NCBI RefSeq assembly: GCF_036030735.1
Contig: NZ_CP107928.1
Coordinates: 7,254,001 to 7,318,000 of the forward strand
Reading direction: 5' to 3'
DNA from: Streptomyces sp. NBC_00425
GTDB lineage: Bacteria; Actinomycetota; Actinomycetes; Streptomycetales; Streptomycetaceae
Length of the DNA stretch: 64,000 nt
The translations under genes were made by a program, and so were the position numbers. Below, in pieces: positions 11,650-34,670 of this stretch. The first letter of the stretch is position 1. The number at the start of each line of letters is the position of its first letter. The notes below the pieces were generated by a model. That model had not been told where the DNA came from and ran no database searches. It worked only from the letters and a program-made list of their open reading frames with translations.

Positions 11650-11672
11650 ACGGTACGGGCAGCCACCGACAA
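11650..11672 (-). promoter_or_regulatory. RecA-independent DNA-damage promoter of ogt (RecA-NDp/PafBC type)
   Basis: On the minus strand: TTGTCGGTG (11672-11664), exactly 8 bp, then TACCGT (11655-11650). This is a full match to TTGTCRGTG-N8-TAnnnT, the LexA-independent damage promoter known from mycobacteria and controlled there by PafBC. The ATG follows six bases later. Confidence 0.85.
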
Positions 11673-13763: not shown

Positions 13764-13786
13764 TTGTCAGTGGGGGGTCGTACGGT
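13764..13786 (+). promoter_or_regulatory. DNA-damage promoter of uvrB (RecA-NDp/PafBC type)
   Basis: TTGTCAGTG (13764-13772), 8-bp spacer, TACGGT (13781-13786): a perfect match to TTGTCRGTG-N8-TAnnnT. The uvrB ATG begins seven bases after the -10 box, so a transcript starting at the usual distance would be leaderless. Confidence 0.88.
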
Positions 13787-13793
13787 GGATGGC

Positions 13794-15938
13794 ATGCGGC
13801 CCGTTTCCCACATCGAACGCACGGTGGCGCCCTTCGAGGTCGTCAGTCCCTACCAGCCCAGCGGCGACCAGCCGACGGCCATCGCCGAACTCGCCAAGCG
13901 CGTCGAGGCGGGCGAGAAGGACGTCGTCCTGCTCGGCGCGACCGGCACCGGAAAGTCCGCCACCACCGCGTGGATGATCGAGAAGCTTCAGCGCCCCACC
14001 CTGGTGATGGCGCCGAACAAGACCCTGGCCGCCCAGCTGGCGAACGAGTTCCGTGAGCTGCTGCCGAACAACGCGGTCGAGTACTTCGTCTCGTACTACG
14101 ACTACTACCAGCCCGAGGCGTACGTACCGCAGTCGGACACCTACATCGAGAAGGACTCCTCGATCAACGAGGAGGTCGAGCGCCTGCGCCACTCCGCGAC
14201 CAACTCGCTGCTCACCCGCCGTGACGTCGTCGTGGTCGCCTCGGTCTCCTGCATCTACGGCCTCGGCACCCCGCAGGAGTACGTGGACCGGATGGTCCCC
14301 CTCAGGGTCGGCGACGAGCTCGACCGGGACCAGCTGCTGCGCCGCTTCGTCGACATCCAGTACACGCGCAACGACCTGGCGTTCACCCGCGGCACCTTCC
14401 GGGTGCGCGGCGACACCATCGAGATCTTCCCGGTCTACGAGGAGCTCGCCGTCCGCATCGAGATGTTCGGCGACGAGATCGAGGCCCTGTCCACGCTGCA
14501 CCCGCTCACCGGCGAGATCATCAGCGAGGACCAGCAGCTGTACATCTTCCCCGCCACGCACTATGTGGCGGGCCCCGAGCGTCTCGAGCGGGCCGCGAAC
14601 GACATCGAGAAGGAGCTCGGCGAGCGCCTGGCCGAGCTGGAGAAGCAGGGCAAGCTGCTCGAGGCGCAACGCCTGCGCATGCGCACCACGTACGACCTCG
14701 AGATGCTCCGCCAGATCGGCTCCTGCTCCGGCGTGGAGAACTACTCGATGCACTTCGACGGCCGCTCGCCCGGCTCCCCGCCGAACACACTGCTCGACTA
14801 CTTCCCGGACGACTTCCTGCTCGTCATCGACGAGTCCCATGTCACCGTGCCGCAGATCGGCGCCATGTACGAGGGAGACGCCTCCCGTAAGCGCACCCTC
14901 GTCGACCACGGCTTCCGGCTGCCGTCGGCCCTCGACAACCGCCCGCTGAAGTGGGAGGAGTTCCAGGAACGCATCGGGCAGACCGTGTATCTGTCGGCGA
15001 CGCCCGGCAAGTACGAGCTCTCGCGCGGCGACGGCGTCGTGGAGCAGATCATCCGCCCCACCGGCCTCATCGACCCCGAGGTCGTCGTCAAGCCCACCGA
15101 GGGCCAGATCGACGACCTGGTGCACGAGATCCGCGAACGCGTCGAGAAGGACGAGCGCGTCCTGGTCACCACGCTCACCAAGAAGATGGCCGAGGACCTC
15201 ACGGCCTACTTCCTGGAACTCGGCATCCAGGTGCGCTATCTGCACAGCGACGTCGACACGTTGCGGCGTATCGAGCTGCTGCGCGAACTGCGCGCCGGCG
15301 AGTTCGACGTCCTGGTCGGCATCAACCTCCTGAGGGAGGGCCTGGACCTGCCCGAGGTGTCTCTGGTGGCGATCCTCGACGCCGACAAGGAGGGCTTCCT
15401 GCGCTCCGGAACCTCACTGATCCAGACCATCGGCCGCGCGGCGCGCAACGTCTCCGGTCAGGTCCACATGTACGCCGACAAGATCACCCCGGGCATGGAA
15501 CGGGCCATCGACGAGACCAACCGCCGCCGGGAGCGGCAGGTCGCCTACAACACGGCCCACGGCATCGACCCGCAACCGCTCCGCAAGAAGATCAACGACA
15601 TCGTCGCGCAGATCGCCCGCGAGGAGGTCGACACGGAGCAGCTGCTCGGGTCCGGCTACCGGGCGAAGAAGGACGGCCGCGCCACCAAGGCCCCGGTGCC
15701 CTCCCTCGGCGACAAGGCGGTCAAGGGCGCGAAGTCCGGGCAGGCCAGGGGCAAGGCGGCGGCTACGGTGCCGACCGACCGCCCGGCGGCCGAACTCGCC
15801 GAGCAGATCGAGGAGATGACCGAGCGCATGCGGGCCGCCGCAGCGGACCTGCAGTTCGAGGTGGCCGCCCGGATCCGCGACGAAGTCTCCGAGATGAAGA
15901 AGGAATTGCGCCAGATGAAAGAGGCGGGTCTGGCCTGA
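13794..15938 (+). CDS. uvrB: Excinuclease ABC subunit B
   Basis: Damage-verifying helicase-like subunit of nucleotide excision repair. UvrA loads it on the lesion and it then recruits UvrC. The protein has 714 residues. Walker A is GATGTGKS (48-55). The beta-hairpin region with [10 protein letters not shown] follows, then the DESH box and helicase motifs V and VI ([11 protein letters not shown] and TIGRAARN). A C-terminal UVR motif for binding UvrC closes the protein (last 40 residues). A linker rich in Lys and Ala (about 630-665) precedes the UVR motif. The ATG at 13794 is chosen because the damage promoter leaves no room for a longer leader; a start at 13764 would lie inside that promoter. 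Confidence 0.97.
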
Positions 15939-16019
15939 CGGACCCGTGCGACTCCTGTGCCCCGGCCCCGCGCATGCTGTGTTGCAAGACCGACACAAAG
16001 TGCGGGCCTGGGTGCGGCA

Positions 16020-16042
16020 CTGTCAGTGCCTTTGCGTAGGGT
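16020..16042 (+). promoter_or_regulatory. DNA-damage-type promoter upstream of terD
   Basis: CTGTCAGTG (16020-16028), 8-bp spacer, TAGGGT (16037-16042). This matches TTGTCRGTG-N8-TAnnnT at 14 of 15 fixed positions or better, with only the first T replaced by C. Transcription would start near 16049, giving a ~50-nt leader with a GAGGGG ribosome-binding site. Confidence 0.72.
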
Positions 16043-16099
16043 TTCCGTCAACCGCGGGCGCCGCGGCAACAGGGGACAGCTCGAGAGGGGAATCAGCGC

Positions 16100-16678
16100 G
16101 TGACCGTCAACATGACCAAGGGTCAGGCCATCAGTCTGCAGAAGAACGACGGGGGCAGCCTGACCGCGGTGCGCATGGGTCTCGGCTGGCAGGCGGCCCC
16201 GCGGCGCGGCCTGTTCGGCTCCCGGACCCGGGAGATCGACCTCGACGCCTCCGCCGTCCTGTTCGCGGACAAGCAGCCGGTCGACGTCGTCTTCTTCCGT
16301 CACCTGGTGAGCGACGACGGCTCCGTCCGTCACACCGGTGACAACCTGGTCGGCGGGGTCGGCCAGGGCGGCGACGACGAGGCGATCCTCGTCGACCTCG
16401 CGCGTGTGCCGGTCCACATCGACCAGATCGTCTTCACCGTGAACTCCTTCACGGGCCAGACGTTCCAGGAGGTGCAGAACGCCTTCTGCCGCCTGGTGGA
16501 CGAGACCAACGGCCAGGAACTGGCGCGCTACACGCTCGCGGGCGGCGGAGCGTACACGGCGCAGATCATGGCGAAGGTGCACCGGGTCGGCGGGGGCTGG
16601 AACATGACGGCCCTCGGCACTCCGGCCAACGGCCGTACCTTCCAGGACCTGATGCCCGCGATCCTTCCGGCGCTGTAA
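16100..16678 (+). CDS. TerD-family stress/tellurite-resistance protein
   Basis: Cytoplasmic calcium-binding beta-sandwich protein of the TerD family, 192 residues. It carries the usual opening (KGQAISLQK), a basic insert (AAPRRGLFGSRTREIDLDASA), and the acidic Ca2+-binding stretch GDNLVGGVGQGGDDE (about 79-93). VNSFTGQTFQEVQNAFCRL, characteristic of the family, follows. TerD proteins are tied to resistance to tellurite, oxidants, phage and DNA damage, although the mechanism is unsettled. The GTG start follows GAGGGG by nine bases. It is followed 62 bp later by a TerD-fusion gene and preceded by a damage-type promoter. Confidence 0.93.
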   Translation: MTVNMTKGQAISLQKNDGGSLTAVRMGLGWQAAPRRGLFGSRTREIDLDASAVLFADKQPVDVVFFRHLVSDDGSVRHTGDNLVGGVGQGGDDEAILVDLARVPVHIDQIVFTVNSFTGQTFQEVQNAFCRLVDETNGQELARYTLAGGGAYTAQIMAKVHRVGGGWNMTALGTPANGRTFQDLMPAILPAL

Positions 16679-16740
16679 GGCCGTCGGCCGGCGAGCGGCA
16701 CCACCACAACACCACACGTGACGCAGGGGGACGACAGGCG

Positions 16741-18792
16741 ATGACGGCCGAGCTGGTGCGGGGGCAGAACCACCCGCTCTCCCAGGTCCGGCTCGAGATC
16801 CGGATCTCGGCCGGCAAGCCCGTCGTGGCGACGGCCGTTCTCGGCGACGAGAGCGGCAGAATCCACGGCGTCGAGTGGGTGGCCCATCCGGGCGTGCCCA
16901 CGCTGCCCGGCCTGGAGGTCTCCCGCCAGGCCGCCGCGGATCACCGCCTCGCGGTGGACCTGGACGCCATGCCGGCCGTCGTGCACCGGGTCGGCGTCGT
17001 GCTGGCGCTGCCCACAGGAGTCGGCGGACCGACCGGCTTCGGCGCGGTCGCGGCCCCCTTCGTCGCGGTCACCGGCCTCGACGGGGCAGAGATCGCCACT
17101 TTCACCCTCACCGGACTGGACGCGGAGTCGGCCGTCGTCGCGCTGGAGCTGTACCGGCGGCAGGGCGCCTGGAAGGTGCGCGCCGTCGGCCAGGGCTATG
17201 CGGGCGGCATGGCCGAACTCCTCACCGACCAGGGCCTGCCGCAGGCGCACCGGCTCGCGGCCGAGATCAACGAGGCCGTGGTGCGCGGCCTGGCCCGCTC
17301 GGTGCCGGCCCCGCCGCCGCGCACGCCCGACGGCGACCGCTCCCGGCAGACGGCGGCGTCCGCGCTCGGCCCGGAGCAGAGCGGCTCGCCGTACGGCGCC
17401 CAGAACACCCCCGGCGCCCAGGGAACGCACGGCGCCCAGGGCATCTCGGGGAGCCAGAGCACCGGCGGCCCGTACGGAGCGACGCCGAACCCCCACGGGG
17501 CCGCCGATGCGGCGGGCGGCGCCACGCCGTCCGAACCCGAGCCCGCGCAGTCGGCGTCCGCGGCCGCCGGCGGTCCGATCGACTACAGCCATCCGCGTCG
17601 GCAGAACACGGCCCCGCCTCCGCCGCCGCCCGCCGCGCCCCCGGCGCAGCCCGGGGAACCCGCCCGGCCGGTGGCCGGCGACGCGACCGGCTGGTCCATG
17701 GAGGAGCGGCTCTACAACCAGGTCTGGGGCATGTTCGAGGACCTGGCCCGCAGCACCGCCGCATACCGCAGCGCGGTCGACTTCGCGGACACGCGGATGG
17801 AGAAGGAGCTCGACCAGGTCCTGTCCGACCCGCGCAGCAGGATCGGCGGCCAGGGCGACGCCGCCCGCGAGGCGGCGCAGGCCAAGCACAGCAGCCTCGT
17901 CGATCAGGCCCGGGAGGCCCTGGACCGCGACCTCGGCCAGCTCGGCGCCGAGGCCGACGTCGTCGAACCGGCGCTGCCCGCCGCGTACGCGCGCTGGGAC
18001 AACCCCGTCTGGCACGCCTACCGCGTCCCGATGGAGATGCCCATGGCGCTGCGTCTGGGCGACCTCCACGTGCCCGAGAGCGAACCGCTGCGCATCCCGA
18101 TGCTGGTCCGGCTGCCGCTCGAACGCGGGTTGTGGATCGACAGCGGCCGCACCGGCTCGTCCGACGGGCTGTTCGCCGACTCGCACGACATGCGTCGCCT
18201 GGCCATGGAGTCGGCCGTGGCGCACACGGCCCGGCTGCTCGCGGTGCATCCGGTCGGCGAGTTCACCGTGCACGTCCTCGACCCGGCCGGTTCGGCAGCC
18301 AGGGAGCTGTCGCCGCTGGTGCGGTCCGGGGTCCTCGCGGCCCCGCCCGCGGCCGGTGCGGCGGGCGTTGCGGCGGTCCTGGGGCAGCTCACCGAGCGCG
18401 TCGACCTGGTGCAGATGGCCGTGCGCGGCGGAGTGGCCGACTCCTTGCCGCCGGGGTTCGACACCGCCCAGCAGTTGCTGGTGGTCAACGACTTCCCGCA
18501 CGGCTTCGACGACCGTGCCGTGACCCAGTTGCGCTATCTCGCGGACGAGGGGCCGTCCGTCGGCGTGCACCTGATGATGGTCGCCGACCGGGAGGACGCG
18601 GCCGGTTACGGTCCGTTGCTGGACCCGCTGTGGCGCGGGCTGCTGCGGCTGACCCCGGTGGCGGACGAGCACCTCGCCGACCCCTGGGTGGGCCATGCGT
18701 GGACGTACGAACCGGCCTTGGTCCCGCCCGGCAGCCAGGTGCTGGAGCAGGTGCTGGCACAGGTGGCGGCGGCCCGCACCAACTATTCGTAA
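16741..18792 (+). CDS. Large TerD-domain protein with C-terminal region resembling a FtsK/HerA-like ATPase lacking its P-loop
   Basis: Protein of 683 residues in three parts. Residues 1-165 form a TerD-like beta domain (LDAMPAVVHRVGVVLALP, FTLTGLDAESAVVALELYRR, WKVRAVGQGYAGGM). Residues about 195-310 are a disordered Gly/Gln/Pro linker containing GAQ-rich repeats and a poly-Pro run. Residues about 320-683 are a folded domain: a coiled stretch (EERLYNQVWGMFEDLARST onward), then LRIPMLVRLPLERGLWIDS, HTARLLAVHPVGEFTVHVLDP and LLVVNDFPHGF. The order of these strands is like an FtsK/HerA-type ATPase (P-loop strand, then VLDP, then a Walker-B-like LVVND). However, no GxxxxGK[ST] is present. This resemblance is my inference. 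The gene is probably co-transcribed with terD. Confidence 0.8.
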   Translation: MTAELVRGQNHPLSQVRLEIRISAGKPVVATAVLGDESGRIHGVEWVAHPGVPTLPGLEVSRQAAADHRLAVDLDAMPAVVHRVGVVLALPTGVGGPTGFGAVAAPFVAVTGLDGAEIATFTLTGLDAESAVVALELYRRQGAWKVRAVGQGYAGGMAELLTDQGLPQAHRLAAEINEAVVRGLARSVPAPPPRTPDGDRSRQTAASALGPEQSGSPYGAQNTPGAQGTHGAQGISGSQSTGGPYGATPNPHGAADAAGGATPSEPEPAQSASAAAGGPIDYSHPRRQNTAPPPPPPAAPPAQPGEPARPVAGDATGWSMEERLYNQVWGMFEDLARSTAAYRSAVDFADTRMEKELDQVLSDPRSRIGGQGDAAREAAQAKHSSLVDQAREALDRDLGQLGAEADVVEPALPAAYARWDNPVWHAYRVPMEMPMALRLGDLHVPESEPLRIPMLVRLPLERGLWIDSGRTGSSDGLFADSHDMRRLAMESAVAHTARLLAVHPVGEFTVHVLDPAGSAARELSPLVRSGVLAAPPAAGAAGVAAVLGQLTERVDLVQMAVRGGVADSLPPGFDTAQQLLVVNDFPHGFDDRAVTQLRYLADEGPSVGVHLMMVADREDAAGYGPLLDPLWRGLLRLTPVADEHLADPWVGHAWTYEPALVPPGSQVLEQVLAQVAAARTNYS

Positions 18793-18872: not shown

Positions 18873-19010
18873 CGGAGGGGAGTACTCCCTGCTGCGGTGT
18901 ACCCGTCAATACGGATCAGGCCTGATCCCGGGGCACCGGCCCGTCACGGGTGGAAGAGACCTCCGGCAGCGCGACGGCGCTGTTCACCTGCCGTTACGTA
19001 CTGCCGGAGG
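18873..19010 (+). promoter_or_regulatory. yybP-ykoY (Mn2+) riboswitch and expression platform of terC
   Basis: Leader RNA just upstream of terC. P1 is formed by CGGAGG (18873-18878) and CCTCCG (18960-18965). The family's conserved GGGGAGTA follows the 5' P1 strand, with CGTCAATACGG and the closing GGAAGAGACC. In the platform, CCTCCGGCAG (18960-18969) is the exact reverse complement of CTGCCGGAGG (19001-19010), which contains the Shine-Dalgarno. With metal bound, P1 forms and the ribosome-binding site is free; without it the 10-bp helix hides the site. Assignment rests on these motifs; the direction of control is inferred. Confidence 0.76.
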
Positions 19011-19014
19011 CGCA

Positions 19015-20016
19015 GTGGATGTTTCCGTGAACCTGTGGGTTCTGACCATCGTCGGCCTGGCCGCCCTGATCGCGGTCGACTTCTTCATCGGCCGCAAACC
19101 GCACGACGTCTCGATCAAGGAAGCCGGGATCTGGACGGTCGTCTGGATCGCCCTGGCCGGCCTGTTCGGCCTCGGCCTGTTCCTCTTCTCCGGGGGGCAG
19201 CCCGCCGGAGAGTTCTTCGCGGGCTTCATCACCGAGAAGTCGCTCAGCGTCGACAACCTCTTCGTGTTCGTCCTGATCATGGGCAAGTTCGCGGTCCCGT
19301 CGCAGTACCAGCAGCGGGTCCTGCTCGTCGGCGTCCTGATAGCCCTGGTCCTGAGGGCGATCTTCATCGCGGCGGGCGCGGCGATCCTCGCCAGCTTCGC
19401 CTGGGTCTTCTACCTCTTCGGCGCCTTCCTGATCTGGACGGCCTGGAAGCTCATCCAGGAGGCACGGGCCGACGACGAGGACGAGGAGTTCGAGGAGAAC
19501 AAGCTGCTCAAGGCCGCCGAGCGCAGGTTCGGCGTCGCCGACCGCTACCACGGCACCAAGCTGTGGATCGAGCAGAACGGCAAGCGGGTCATGACCCCGA
19601 TGCTGGTCGTGATGCTCGCGATCGGCACGACCGACGTGCTCTTCGCCCTCGACTCCATCCCCGCCATCTTCGGGCTGACGCAGGACCCGTACATCGTCTT
19701 CACCGCGAACGCCTTCGCGCTGATGGGTCTGCGGCAGCTGTACTTCCTCATCGGCGGTCTGCTGAGGAAGCTGGTCCACCTCAGCTACGGCCTGTCGATC
19801 ATCCTCGGCTTCATCGGCGTGAAGCTGGTGCTGCACGCGCTGCACGAGTCCGGGGTGCACGTGCCCGAGATCAGCATTCCGGTCTCGCTCGGCGTCATCT
19901 GTTCGGTCCTGATCGTCACCACGATCACCAGCCTGCGGGCCTCCCGGAAGCAGGCGGCGGACGAGGAGGCGCAGACGGCGAGTGAAGGCGCTCCGAAGGA
20001 CAGCATCGGAGCCTGA
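19015..20016 (+). CDS. TerC-family membrane protein, probable manganese exporter
   Basis: Integral membrane protein of 333 residues with about nine helices. The two acidic signature segments of the TerC/Alx family are present: SLSVDNLFVFVLIM (about 78-92) and GTTDVLFALDSIPAIF (about 203-218). Their aspartates probably coordinate the cation. A charged DDEDEEFEEN loop lies between the two halves. Relatives of the Alx/MeeF type export Mn2+ and protect metalloproteins at the secretory membrane. The GTG at 19015 lies four bases after GGAGG and gives the family-typical N-terminus. Control by the upstream Mn2+-type riboswitch supports a manganese role rather than tellurite. Confidence 0.93.
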   Translation: MDVSVNLWVLTIVGLAALIAVDFFIGRKPHDVSIKEAGIWTVVWIALAGLFGLGLFLFSGGQPAGEFFAGFITEKSLSVDNLFVFVLIMGKFAVPSQYQQRVLLVGVLIALVLRAIFIAAGAAILASFAWVFYLFGAFLIWTAWKLIQEARADDEDEEFEENKLLKAAERRFGVADRYHGTKLWIEQNGKRVMTPMLVVMLAIGTTDVLFALDSIPAIFGLTQDPYIVFTANAFALMGLRQLYFLIGGLLRKLVHLSYGLSIILGFIGVKLVLHALHESGVHVPEISIPVSLGVICSVLIVTTITSLRASRKQAADEEAQTASEGAPKDSIGA

Positions 20017-34647: not shown

Positions 34648-34670
34648 TTGTCAGTGGCTCCCCCTAGTCT
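34648..34670 (+). promoter_or_regulatory. DNA-damage promoter of uvrA (RecA-NDp/PafBC type)
   Basis: TTGTCAGTG (34648-34656), 8-bp spacer, TAGTCT (34665-34670): a perfect match to TTGTCRGTG-N8-TAnnnT. Transcription would start near 34677, leaving a ~49-nt leader before the GTG start of uvrA. Confidence 0.87.

What the first reader, a model, noticed from the sequence alone, without database searches (positions are those of the whole stretch)
16020..16678. TerD gene carries the same DNA-damage promoter as uvrA, uvrB and ogt
CTGTCAGTG-N8-TAGGGT at 16020-16042 matches the LexA-independent damage promoter TTGTCRGTG-N8-TAnnnT (RecA-NDp, PafBC-controlled in mycobacteria) in all but the first base. 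It stands alone upstream of terD, immediately after uvrB. This would place TerD and its large TerD-fusion partner in the DNA-damage regulon, giving a concrete route to the proposed link between Ter proteins and DNA stress. I know of no description of this in Streptomyces.
Basis: partly seen in the sequence, partly recalled or inferred. Interest (0 to 1): 0.82.

Follow-up and report, generated by a model that had tools for sequence, protein, structure and literature searches.

The report
Partly conserved damage-promoter match before terD
A Streptomyces stress gene (terD) beside the DNA-repair gene uvrB carries a near-perfect copy of a known DNA-damage promoter, but relatives keep this copy only patchily, while two other pieces of the same promoter, one of unknown function, are kept much more strictly.

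Summary
CTGTCAGTG-N8-TAGGGT is at 16020-16042, 57 bp before terD, and differs from the RecA-NDp/PafBC motif only in its first base. Exact motifs precede ogt, uvrB and uvrA in the window. The genome has 27 exact and 110 sites with at most one mismatch, against 9 for the reversed pattern. They include recA, uvrA, uvrB, ruvC and ogt, and pafB-pafC are present.

On the same 76 species and tree, the seven fixed box columns changed 0 times at uvrB, 2 at ogt (one mislocated locus, otherwise 0) and 33 at terD. In an evenly drawn genus sample the box is intact in 19 of 56 terD promoters. More conserved are the -10 (TGCGTAGGGT) and a 21-bp element (15979-15999), 37 bp upstream in 125 of 147 loci that have it. 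Its regulator is unknown.

Best reading: terD has its own conserved promoter, and the PafBC box is a lineage-restricted layer, probably working in this strain and near relatives (31 of 36 intact), not genus-wide. Streptomyces RecA-NDp promoters are already published; my searches found no report of one at terD. No expression data were available.

The parts
13764..13786 (+). exact RecA-NDp/PafBC motif of uvrB (TTGTCAGTG-N8-TACGGT); nearly leaderless
   Evidence: all 11 fixed positions in 80 of 80 distinct orthologous upstreams
13788..15938 (+). uvrB (exact start codon uncertain)
   Evidence: Pfam UvrB_inter, UvrB, Helicase_C, UVR
15979..15999 (+). 21-bp upstream element GTGTTGCAAGACCGACACAAA, 37 bp upstream of the terD -10; function unknown
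   Evidence: 20-bp core within 5 mismatches in 147 of 198 uvrB-terD loci; spacing to the -10 37 bp in 125 of 147, 35-38 in all 147; one copy in the own genome at up to 3 mismatches
16016..16030 (.). perfect 15-bp palindrome GGCACTGTCAGTGCC overlapping the box; rival reading as dimer operator or RNA hairpin
   Evidence: not enriched elsewhere in the genome
16020..16028 (+). PafBC-like box CTGTCAGTG (first base C instead of T)
16037..16042 (+). -10 hexamer TAGGGT, preceded by TGCG
   Evidence: 0-7 changes per column on the tree, TGC 2-4, G 12, in 147 element-bearing loci; the hexamer, not the TGCG, was partly selected by the anchoring pattern; 14 of 198 loci had no -10 of that form
16100..16678 (+). 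terD (192 aa)
   Evidence: Pfam TerD 2.8e-42; fetched beside uvrB in 58 of the 61 genomes
16741..18792 (+). TerD-domain fusion protein (683 aa), probable operon partner
   Evidence: Pfam TerD 9.3e-18; order terD-fusion-terC in 68 of 70 long named loci
18958..20016 (+). terC/alx family membrane protein (start uncertain)
   Evidence: Pfam TerC 1.8e-52; TIGR03718 1.3e-115; no PafBC-like motif on the + strand upstream at up to 3 mismatches
11650..11672 (-). exact RecA-NDp/PafBC motif of ogt
   Evidence: 76 of 76 distinct orthologous upstreams
34648..34670 (+). exact RecA-NDp/PafBC motif 43 bp before uvrA (gene named from its sequence by recall)

Best explanation
terD and its fusion partner are driven from one conserved promoter just after uvrB. 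Its fixed parts are the -10 TGCGTAGGGT and a 21-bp element 37 bp upstream. No consensus-like -35 was found, so an unknown activator bound at the 21-bp element most likely recruits the housekeeping polymerase (inferred). In one large group of Streptomyces, including this strain, the space between them also holds a PafBC-type box at the correct 8-bp spacing from the -10. There the same -10 can probably also be used by PafBC-adapted polymerase after DNA damage (inferred from the known mycobacterial mechanism). This second input was probably present early and has decayed repeatedly, so damage control of terD would be a lineage-dependent extra, not its core regulation. Shown here: the sequence features, their conservation, the genome-wide motif set and the pafB-pafC genes. 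Not shown: the start site, PafBC binding, induction, the activator.
For: Motif set real in this genome: 27 exact and 110 within one mismatch against 9 reversed controls. Exact sites front uvrB, ogt (Pfam), a UvrD-type helicase, other helicases, ribosomal protein S6, a DNA polymerase III beta-clamp gene and, named from sequence by recall, recA, uvrA, ruvC and a uracil-DNA glycosylase. One-mismatch sites front genes with UvrD, DEAD-helicase, RadA-like, RecD2-like, DnaG, exonuclease, DNA-ligase and exonuclease VII domains among others. PafB and PafC are adjacent genes; their best solved-structure relatives are 7p5x/9fnd and 6sj9 PafBC. At terD the box is intact in 57 of 78 distinct named promoters and 31 of 36 loci of a near clade. 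Near-misses at the exact offset are in excess among box-less sequences: 30 of 89 within 3 mismatches against 4.4% at other offsets, as expected for decayed boxes. The -10, TGCG and upstream element are more constrained: 2.3, 5.2 and 14.2 changes per column against 22.3 for the box and 27.8 for the gap. Spacing element to -10 is nearly fixed while uvrB stop to element varies 6-493 bp. Passages list SCO1965 (the S. coelicolor orthologue by recalled locus order) among detected proteins in studies not about DNA damage (PMC3293853; PMC7244524), which fits a non-damage input.
Against: No expression or binding data. The box may be too weak: its first base is C in 49 of 57 intact named sites and T in 1, while uvrB has T in 79 of 80. 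T at the second box position evolves at background rate. Many genes behind the motif have no evident tie to DNA repair (see full report), so motif presence alone does not prove a repair role. The upstream element could act in RNA: its flanks pair better than swapped flanks and 19 of 66 representatives have a flank helix of 6 bp or more against 4.3% of coding controls, though folding z-scores do not exceed coding controls. The element is absent (more than 5 mismatches) in 51 of 198 loci, including other genera.
Confidence: 0.55

Rival explanations
1. One reading: terD is a full, conserved member of the PafBC damage regulon in Streptomyces, on the same footing as uvrB and ogt.
For: Near-perfect motif, spacing and -10; low genome-wide false-match rate; box columns change half as often as neighbouring columns in the window's 103-locus clade, 6.7 against 13.4, P 0.012 by random columns.
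Against: 0, 2 and 33 changes at uvrB, ogt and terD on the same 76 species, the 2 from one mislocated locus; 19 of 56 intact in the even genus sample; 18 changes of state on the tree; 0 of 37 distinct anchored loci without the upstream element have it.
Confidence: 0.12
2. The box is not read by PafBC at all. It is part of a palindromic operator (GGCACTGTCAGTGCC, symmetric core CNCNGTCNGNG) or of a diverged -35 region for another regulator, and resembles the PafBC box by accident.
For: The 15-bp palindrome is perfect in the window. Its centre scores highest of 42 centres in box-intact loci (5.49 of 7 pairs) and, by a small margin, in box-broken loci (2.92; next 2.75). Flanking columns outside the box (-22C, -21G, -19C) are about as constrained as the box.
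Against: A/T columns tend to change faster in this stretch, box or not, which by itself gives an alternating pattern. The palindrome is nowhere else in the genome beyond the control level. An eight-base match at exactly the right spacing is unlikely to be accidental.
Confidence: 0.25
3. terD responds to damage because it is read through from the damage-induced uvrB promoter, whatever its own box does.
For: Same strand, 161 bp apart, no terminator-like site found in 15800-16200; uvrB motif invariant; adjacency in 198 of 210 fetched loci, the other 12 being second copies.
Against: A conserved terD-proximal -10 with an upstream element at near-fixed spacing implies an own promoter. Hairpins between the genes could still terminate without a T run.
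Confidence: 0.2

Closest known systems
RecA-NDp / PafBC-dependent promoters of mycobacteria (sigma adaptation; passages of PMC11804915, PMC6789036, PMC8223512; exact consensus letters as the finding gives them)
   Same: box, 8-bp spacer, TANNNT -10, and adjacent pafB-pafC genes in the genome
   Different: first base C; box not held across the genus; extra conserved upstream element and TGCG before the -10
Streptomyces RecA-NDp genes: recA of S. rimosus (cited) and the UV-inducible macrodomain gene SCO6735 (passages of PMC5087735, PMC9411070)
   Same: same promoter class in the same genus
   Different: target is a TerD stress gene; no induction data here
Radiation-responsive Ter proteins of Deinococcus radiodurans (passages of PMC5731708)
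   Same: TerB/TerD rise after UVC/vacuum; Ter genes or proteins reported up after gamma irradiation
   Different: other phylum; promoters not compared here

Membership tests
RecA-NDp/PafBC-dependent promoter | TTGTCRGTG box | tested here: inconclusive
   8 of 9 positions; first base C; first-base variants are abundant genome-wide (hand count) and occur in 14 of 76 ogt boxes
RecA-NDp/PafBC-dependent promoter | 8-bp spacer to a TANNNT -10 | tested here: met
RecA-NDp/PafBC-dependent promoter | pafB and pafC encoded in the genome | tested here: met
   L242:466-1443 and 1462-2535
RecA-NDp/PafBC-dependent promoter | box kept in orthologous promoters as at accepted targets | tested here: not met
   33 changes against 0 (uvrB) and 2 (ogt, one mislocated locus); 19 of 56 intact; kept in most near relatives only
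RecA-NDp/PafBC-dependent promoter | induction by DNA damage, dependence on PafBC, start site at the motif | not testable with these tools
TerD family | TerD domain above Pfam cut-off | tested here: met
   144.7 bits against 25.3
Sigma-70/HrdB promoter with -35 | TTGAC-like -35 at 16-18 bp | tested here: inconclusive
   0 sites in 15800-16200 with at least 9 of 12 consensus bases; a weak -35 would be missed

The most novel reading that the evidence does not exclude
The terD operon of Streptomyces is run by an unidentified activator (or RNA-binding factor) whose 21-bp site has one strong copy per genome, and in one branch of the genus PafBC has been added on the same -10. This makes a Ter stress operon a joint reader of DNA damage and of a second, unknown signal, with natural losses of the damage input in sister species.
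Probability: 0.35. Interest if true: 0.65.

Novelty: new member of a known kind. Interest (0 to 1): 0.45.

Why it matters
A passage of the 2022 S. venezuelae LexA study (PMC9380542) says that an initial search suggested the PafBC motif is not conserved there and that a LexA-independent response in Streptomyces remains to be shown. The genome studied here has a large PafBC motif set that includes many DNA-repair genes, and the motif is invariant at uvrB in 80 and at ogt in 76 named genomes, nearly all Streptomyces by title. That makes the question directly testable in Streptomyces. terD is a candidate member whose box is present or broken in different species, a natural experiment on the supposed link between Ter proteins and DNA damage. 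The 21-bp element is a separate, unexplained lead on how Ter genes are controlled.

Tried and rejected
Upstream element as a general transcription-factor site: no second copy in the own genome at up to 3 mismatches. In 61 family genomes 13 had a match within 2 mismatches, two of them with a second place. A sequence profile matched 97 of 119 genomes of the order at E up to 0.5; further matches in the same genomes were weak, at most 17.6 bits in the list. Weaker hits were read in 12 fetched stretches: coding sequence, a leader in front of a protein I take by recall for AdpA (about 14 bits), and one unidentified upstream region; judged chance, not proven. CRP and ArgR were considered as binders: half-site spacing does not fit CRP (recalled consensus); the ArgR paper passages give a 20-nt imperfect palindrome, which the element does not look like. 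WhiA (GACAC, recalled) rejected because that base varies A/C.

Rfam: one match under its gathering score, none over, in 15700-16900. Consensus folding of the 5' leader gave no structure on a poor alignment, so the leader is not settled. RNA hairpin round the element: inconclusive. For it: mean flank helix 5.34 bp against 4.78 (sd 0.095) with shuffled partners in 141 sequences; in 66 representatives 5.08 against 4.66, 7 of 500 shuffles reaching it; mean energy -28.1 against -26.3 with swapped flanks. Against it: energy z-scores no better than coding controls (-0.89 and -1.02); the window hairpin alone z -0.04, the 98-nt intergenic piece z -2.17; 23 of 107 element variants carry a C that breaks the apical stem without a matching change (pairing read by eye).

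Rows dropped: of 61 genus genomes four are not in the 57-locus sample: one partial match, one whose only fetched copy (72%) is not beside uvrB, one without a close match, and one (L175) fetched and beside uvrB but left out; its box has 4 mismatches, so it would count as a miss. One of 57 could not be anchored. Of 198 uvrB-terD loci 14 had no -10 of the searched form. The 80 named loci are the best 80 of 569 confirmed, hence close relatives. Of the 121 genomes (106 with a match), 60 loci were fetched, chosen by me across genera. Of 28 other first-base variants listed, 20 were fetched; of 44 other one-mismatch places listed, 20; the list itself shows 73 of 83. 23 of 27 exact-site ORFs were laid out and 20 scanned. 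Of the 34 one-mismatch ORFs, all 16 first-base ones and 4 of 18 others were scanned. The tree is a FastTree of about 800 bp of uvrB, next to the promoter. The upstream element's change count is inflated by loci with 36-bp spacing, aligned on the -10.

Full report
What is there. The window lies at 7254001-7318000 of a 9.8-Mb single-contig genome, Streptomyces by its nearest named relatives. At 16020-16042 stands CTGTCAGTG-CCTTTGCG-TAGGGT, one base off TTGTCRGTG-N8-TANNNT. It follows uvrB (ends 15938) and precedes terD (16100-16678, Pfam TerD). Then come a TerD-domain fusion (16741-18792) and a TerC/Alx protein. This order holds in 68 of 70 long named loci.

Is the motif more than chance? Yes. 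Simulated windows give 0.07 sites within one mismatch on average, against 4 seen. The whole genome has 27 exact and 110 within-one sites, against 9 for the reversed pattern. Exact sites front uvrB and ogt, a UvrD-type helicase, two further DEAD-box helicase genes (one about 4 kb from pafC), a RecD2-type protein, ribosomal protein S6 and a DNA polymerase III beta-clamp gene. Named from their sequence by recall, they also front recA, uvrA, ruvC and a uracil-DNA glycosylase. Against a pure repair regulon: among the 20 exact-site products scanned, at least 10 have no evident tie to DNA repair or no family hit (WD40, a methyltransferase, isochorismatase, DUF2797, SUKH-4, MFS, DUF4132, and three without a hit). 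Among the 16 first-base-variant products about 6 look like DNA repair or replication, the rest not (HisE-type, ABC transporter, FolB, HAD, DUF4253 and others).

Geometry. In 14 of 27 exact sites I count a likely start codon within -2 to 10 nt of the motif end, so many of these transcripts look leaderless. Of 20 fetched first-base variants 13, and of 20 fetched other one-mismatch sites 12, have a candidate start within -5 to 9 nt. terD, with 57 bp, is not of that type, but other exact sites lie 37-61 bp before their gene too (L004, L009, L010, L013, L014, L021, L024, L025). pafB and pafC are adjacent genes matching the solved PafB/PafC and fused PafBC proteins. So the PafBC motif set exists in this genome. 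A passage of PMC9380542 says an initial search suggested the motif is not conserved in S. venezuelae; I could not examine that species itself.

Is the terD site kept? I fetched 210 terD loci; 198 have uvrB directly upstream, and the 12 others are second copies with other upstream regions. Scanning the intergenic sequence freely, 72 of 106 distinct sequences from the first 110 loci, mostly close relatives, have .TGTC.GTG-N8-TA...T. In the even genus sample the box is intact in 19 of 56, within one mismatch in 22 of 56; the upstream element is within 3 mismatches in 46 of 56, and the -10 is TA[AG]GGT in 52 of 56, anchoring having required a -10 of similar form. None of the 37 distinct anchored loci without the upstream element has an intact box.

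The cleanest control is the same species and tree. Over 76 named genomes the seven fixed box columns changed 0 times at uvrB, 2 at ogt and 33 at terD, of which 13 are at the second T and 9 at the T of GTG. The 2 ogt changes come from one locus, L094, whose site that script mislocated; in the wider scan all 76 ogt upstreams are perfect, so ogt is really 0. At the -10 the T, A and final T together changed 0 times at uvrB, 2 at ogt (the same locus) and 0 at terD, where the anchor required them. So the -10 is held at all three, the box at two. The uvrB and ogt sites were located by best match within about 150 bp, terD by fixed offset from its -10, an asymmetry that cannot produce 80 of 80 perfect matches by chance.

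Evidence that the box is nevertheless meaningful near the window: it is intact in 17 of 18, 20 of 22, 31 of 36, 45 of 54 and 73 of 103 loci in nested clades. In the 103-locus clade its columns change half as often as the gap (6.7 against 13.4, P 0.012 for random columns). Box-less sequences keep near-misses at the exact offset seven to eight times more often than elsewhere (30 of 89, 33.7%, against 4.4%). Among the 60 family-sample loci an intact box occurs in one of another genus (L193) and one of the same genus (L236). I read this as an old box that decays repeatedly, kept in some branches. Fresh gains in some branches are not excluded.

What is more strictly conserved. Two pieces: TGCG-TAGGGT, and GTGTtGCArGAnCGmCACAAA, 14 of whose 20 core positions carry at least 1.77 bits over 107 distinct sequences. 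The two are 37 bp apart in 125 of 147 loci and 35-38 in all 147, although the distance from the uvrB stop varies from 6 to 493 bp. In genomes that have it, one strong copy is the rule. A protein site centred about 60 bp upstream of the presumed start, with no consensus-like -35, suggests an activator acting from upstream (inference). A competing view is an RNA hairpin in read-through uvrB transcripts with the element at its tip: flanks pair better than swapped flanks and 19 of 66 representatives have a flank helix of 6 bp or more against 4.3% of coding controls, yet overall folding is no better than coding controls, so this is open.

Mechanism. In mycobacteria PafBC, switched on by single-stranded DNA, sits between sigma-A domain 4 and promoter DNA, PafB reading a -26 motif (passages of PMC11804915). 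The terD box has the right place for this. I put about 0.6 on terD being PafBC-inducible in this strain and about 0.12 on the genus-wide strong claim; these are judgements. Read-through from uvrB could give damage induction with no terD box at all and must be excluded first.

Comparison with what is known. Streptomyces RecA-NDp promoters are in print (S. rimosus recA by citation; SCO6735 with UV induction; passages). The 2002 and 2004 founding papers were not seen, only cited in those passages. Searches for TerD or tellurium resistance with PafBC, RecA-NDp, DNA damage or mitomycin listed no paper that by title and abstract start describes PafBC or RecA-NDp control of terD; one search listed 15 of 65 papers, and supplements were not read. 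SCO1965 is named in two proteome studies (passages), once as lower in an argR mutant, once in a protein cluster discussed as a stress sign of S. coelicolor. Ter induction by radiation is reported for Deinococcus (passages).

Verdict. Observation confirmed; interpretation partly supported. Interest is moderate: one testable new regulon candidate with natural losses, plus an unexplained strictly conserved element that the finding does not mention.

Noticed in passing
15979-15999: 21-bp element, strictly conserved in most Streptomyces loci at near-fixed distance from the terD -10; binder unknown.
   Followed up: partly
L169-L174, L176-L181: Second terD copies not beside uvrB have different upstream regions; L173, L174 and L176 carry a CTACAGTGCTGTAG palindrome, L177 a one-base variant.
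   Followed up: no
L132, L142-L145, L154, L230: A group with an 87-88 bp uvrB-terD gap, where (G/T)GTCAG abuts TAGGGT and the upstream element is gone.
   Followed up: no
L017, L018, L027, L006, L011, L001, L026: Exact PafBC motifs also stand before a SUKH-4 protein, an MFS transporter, DUF4132, DUF3375, SWIM, WD40 and AAA proteins: candidate unusual regulon members.
   Followed up: partly
L266, L274, L279, L282, L285 and others: Many one-mismatch sites have CANNNT instead of TANNNT and a candidate start codon close by, perhaps a second accepted -10 form.
   Followed up: no
16049-16090: terD leader holds a short CCGC...GCGG inverted repeat that recurs in relatives; structure not established.
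   Followed up: partly
17700-18792: C-terminal part of the TerD fusion looks, by eye, like a degenerate FtsK-type ATPase; Pfam shows only TerD; otherwise untested.
   Followed up: no
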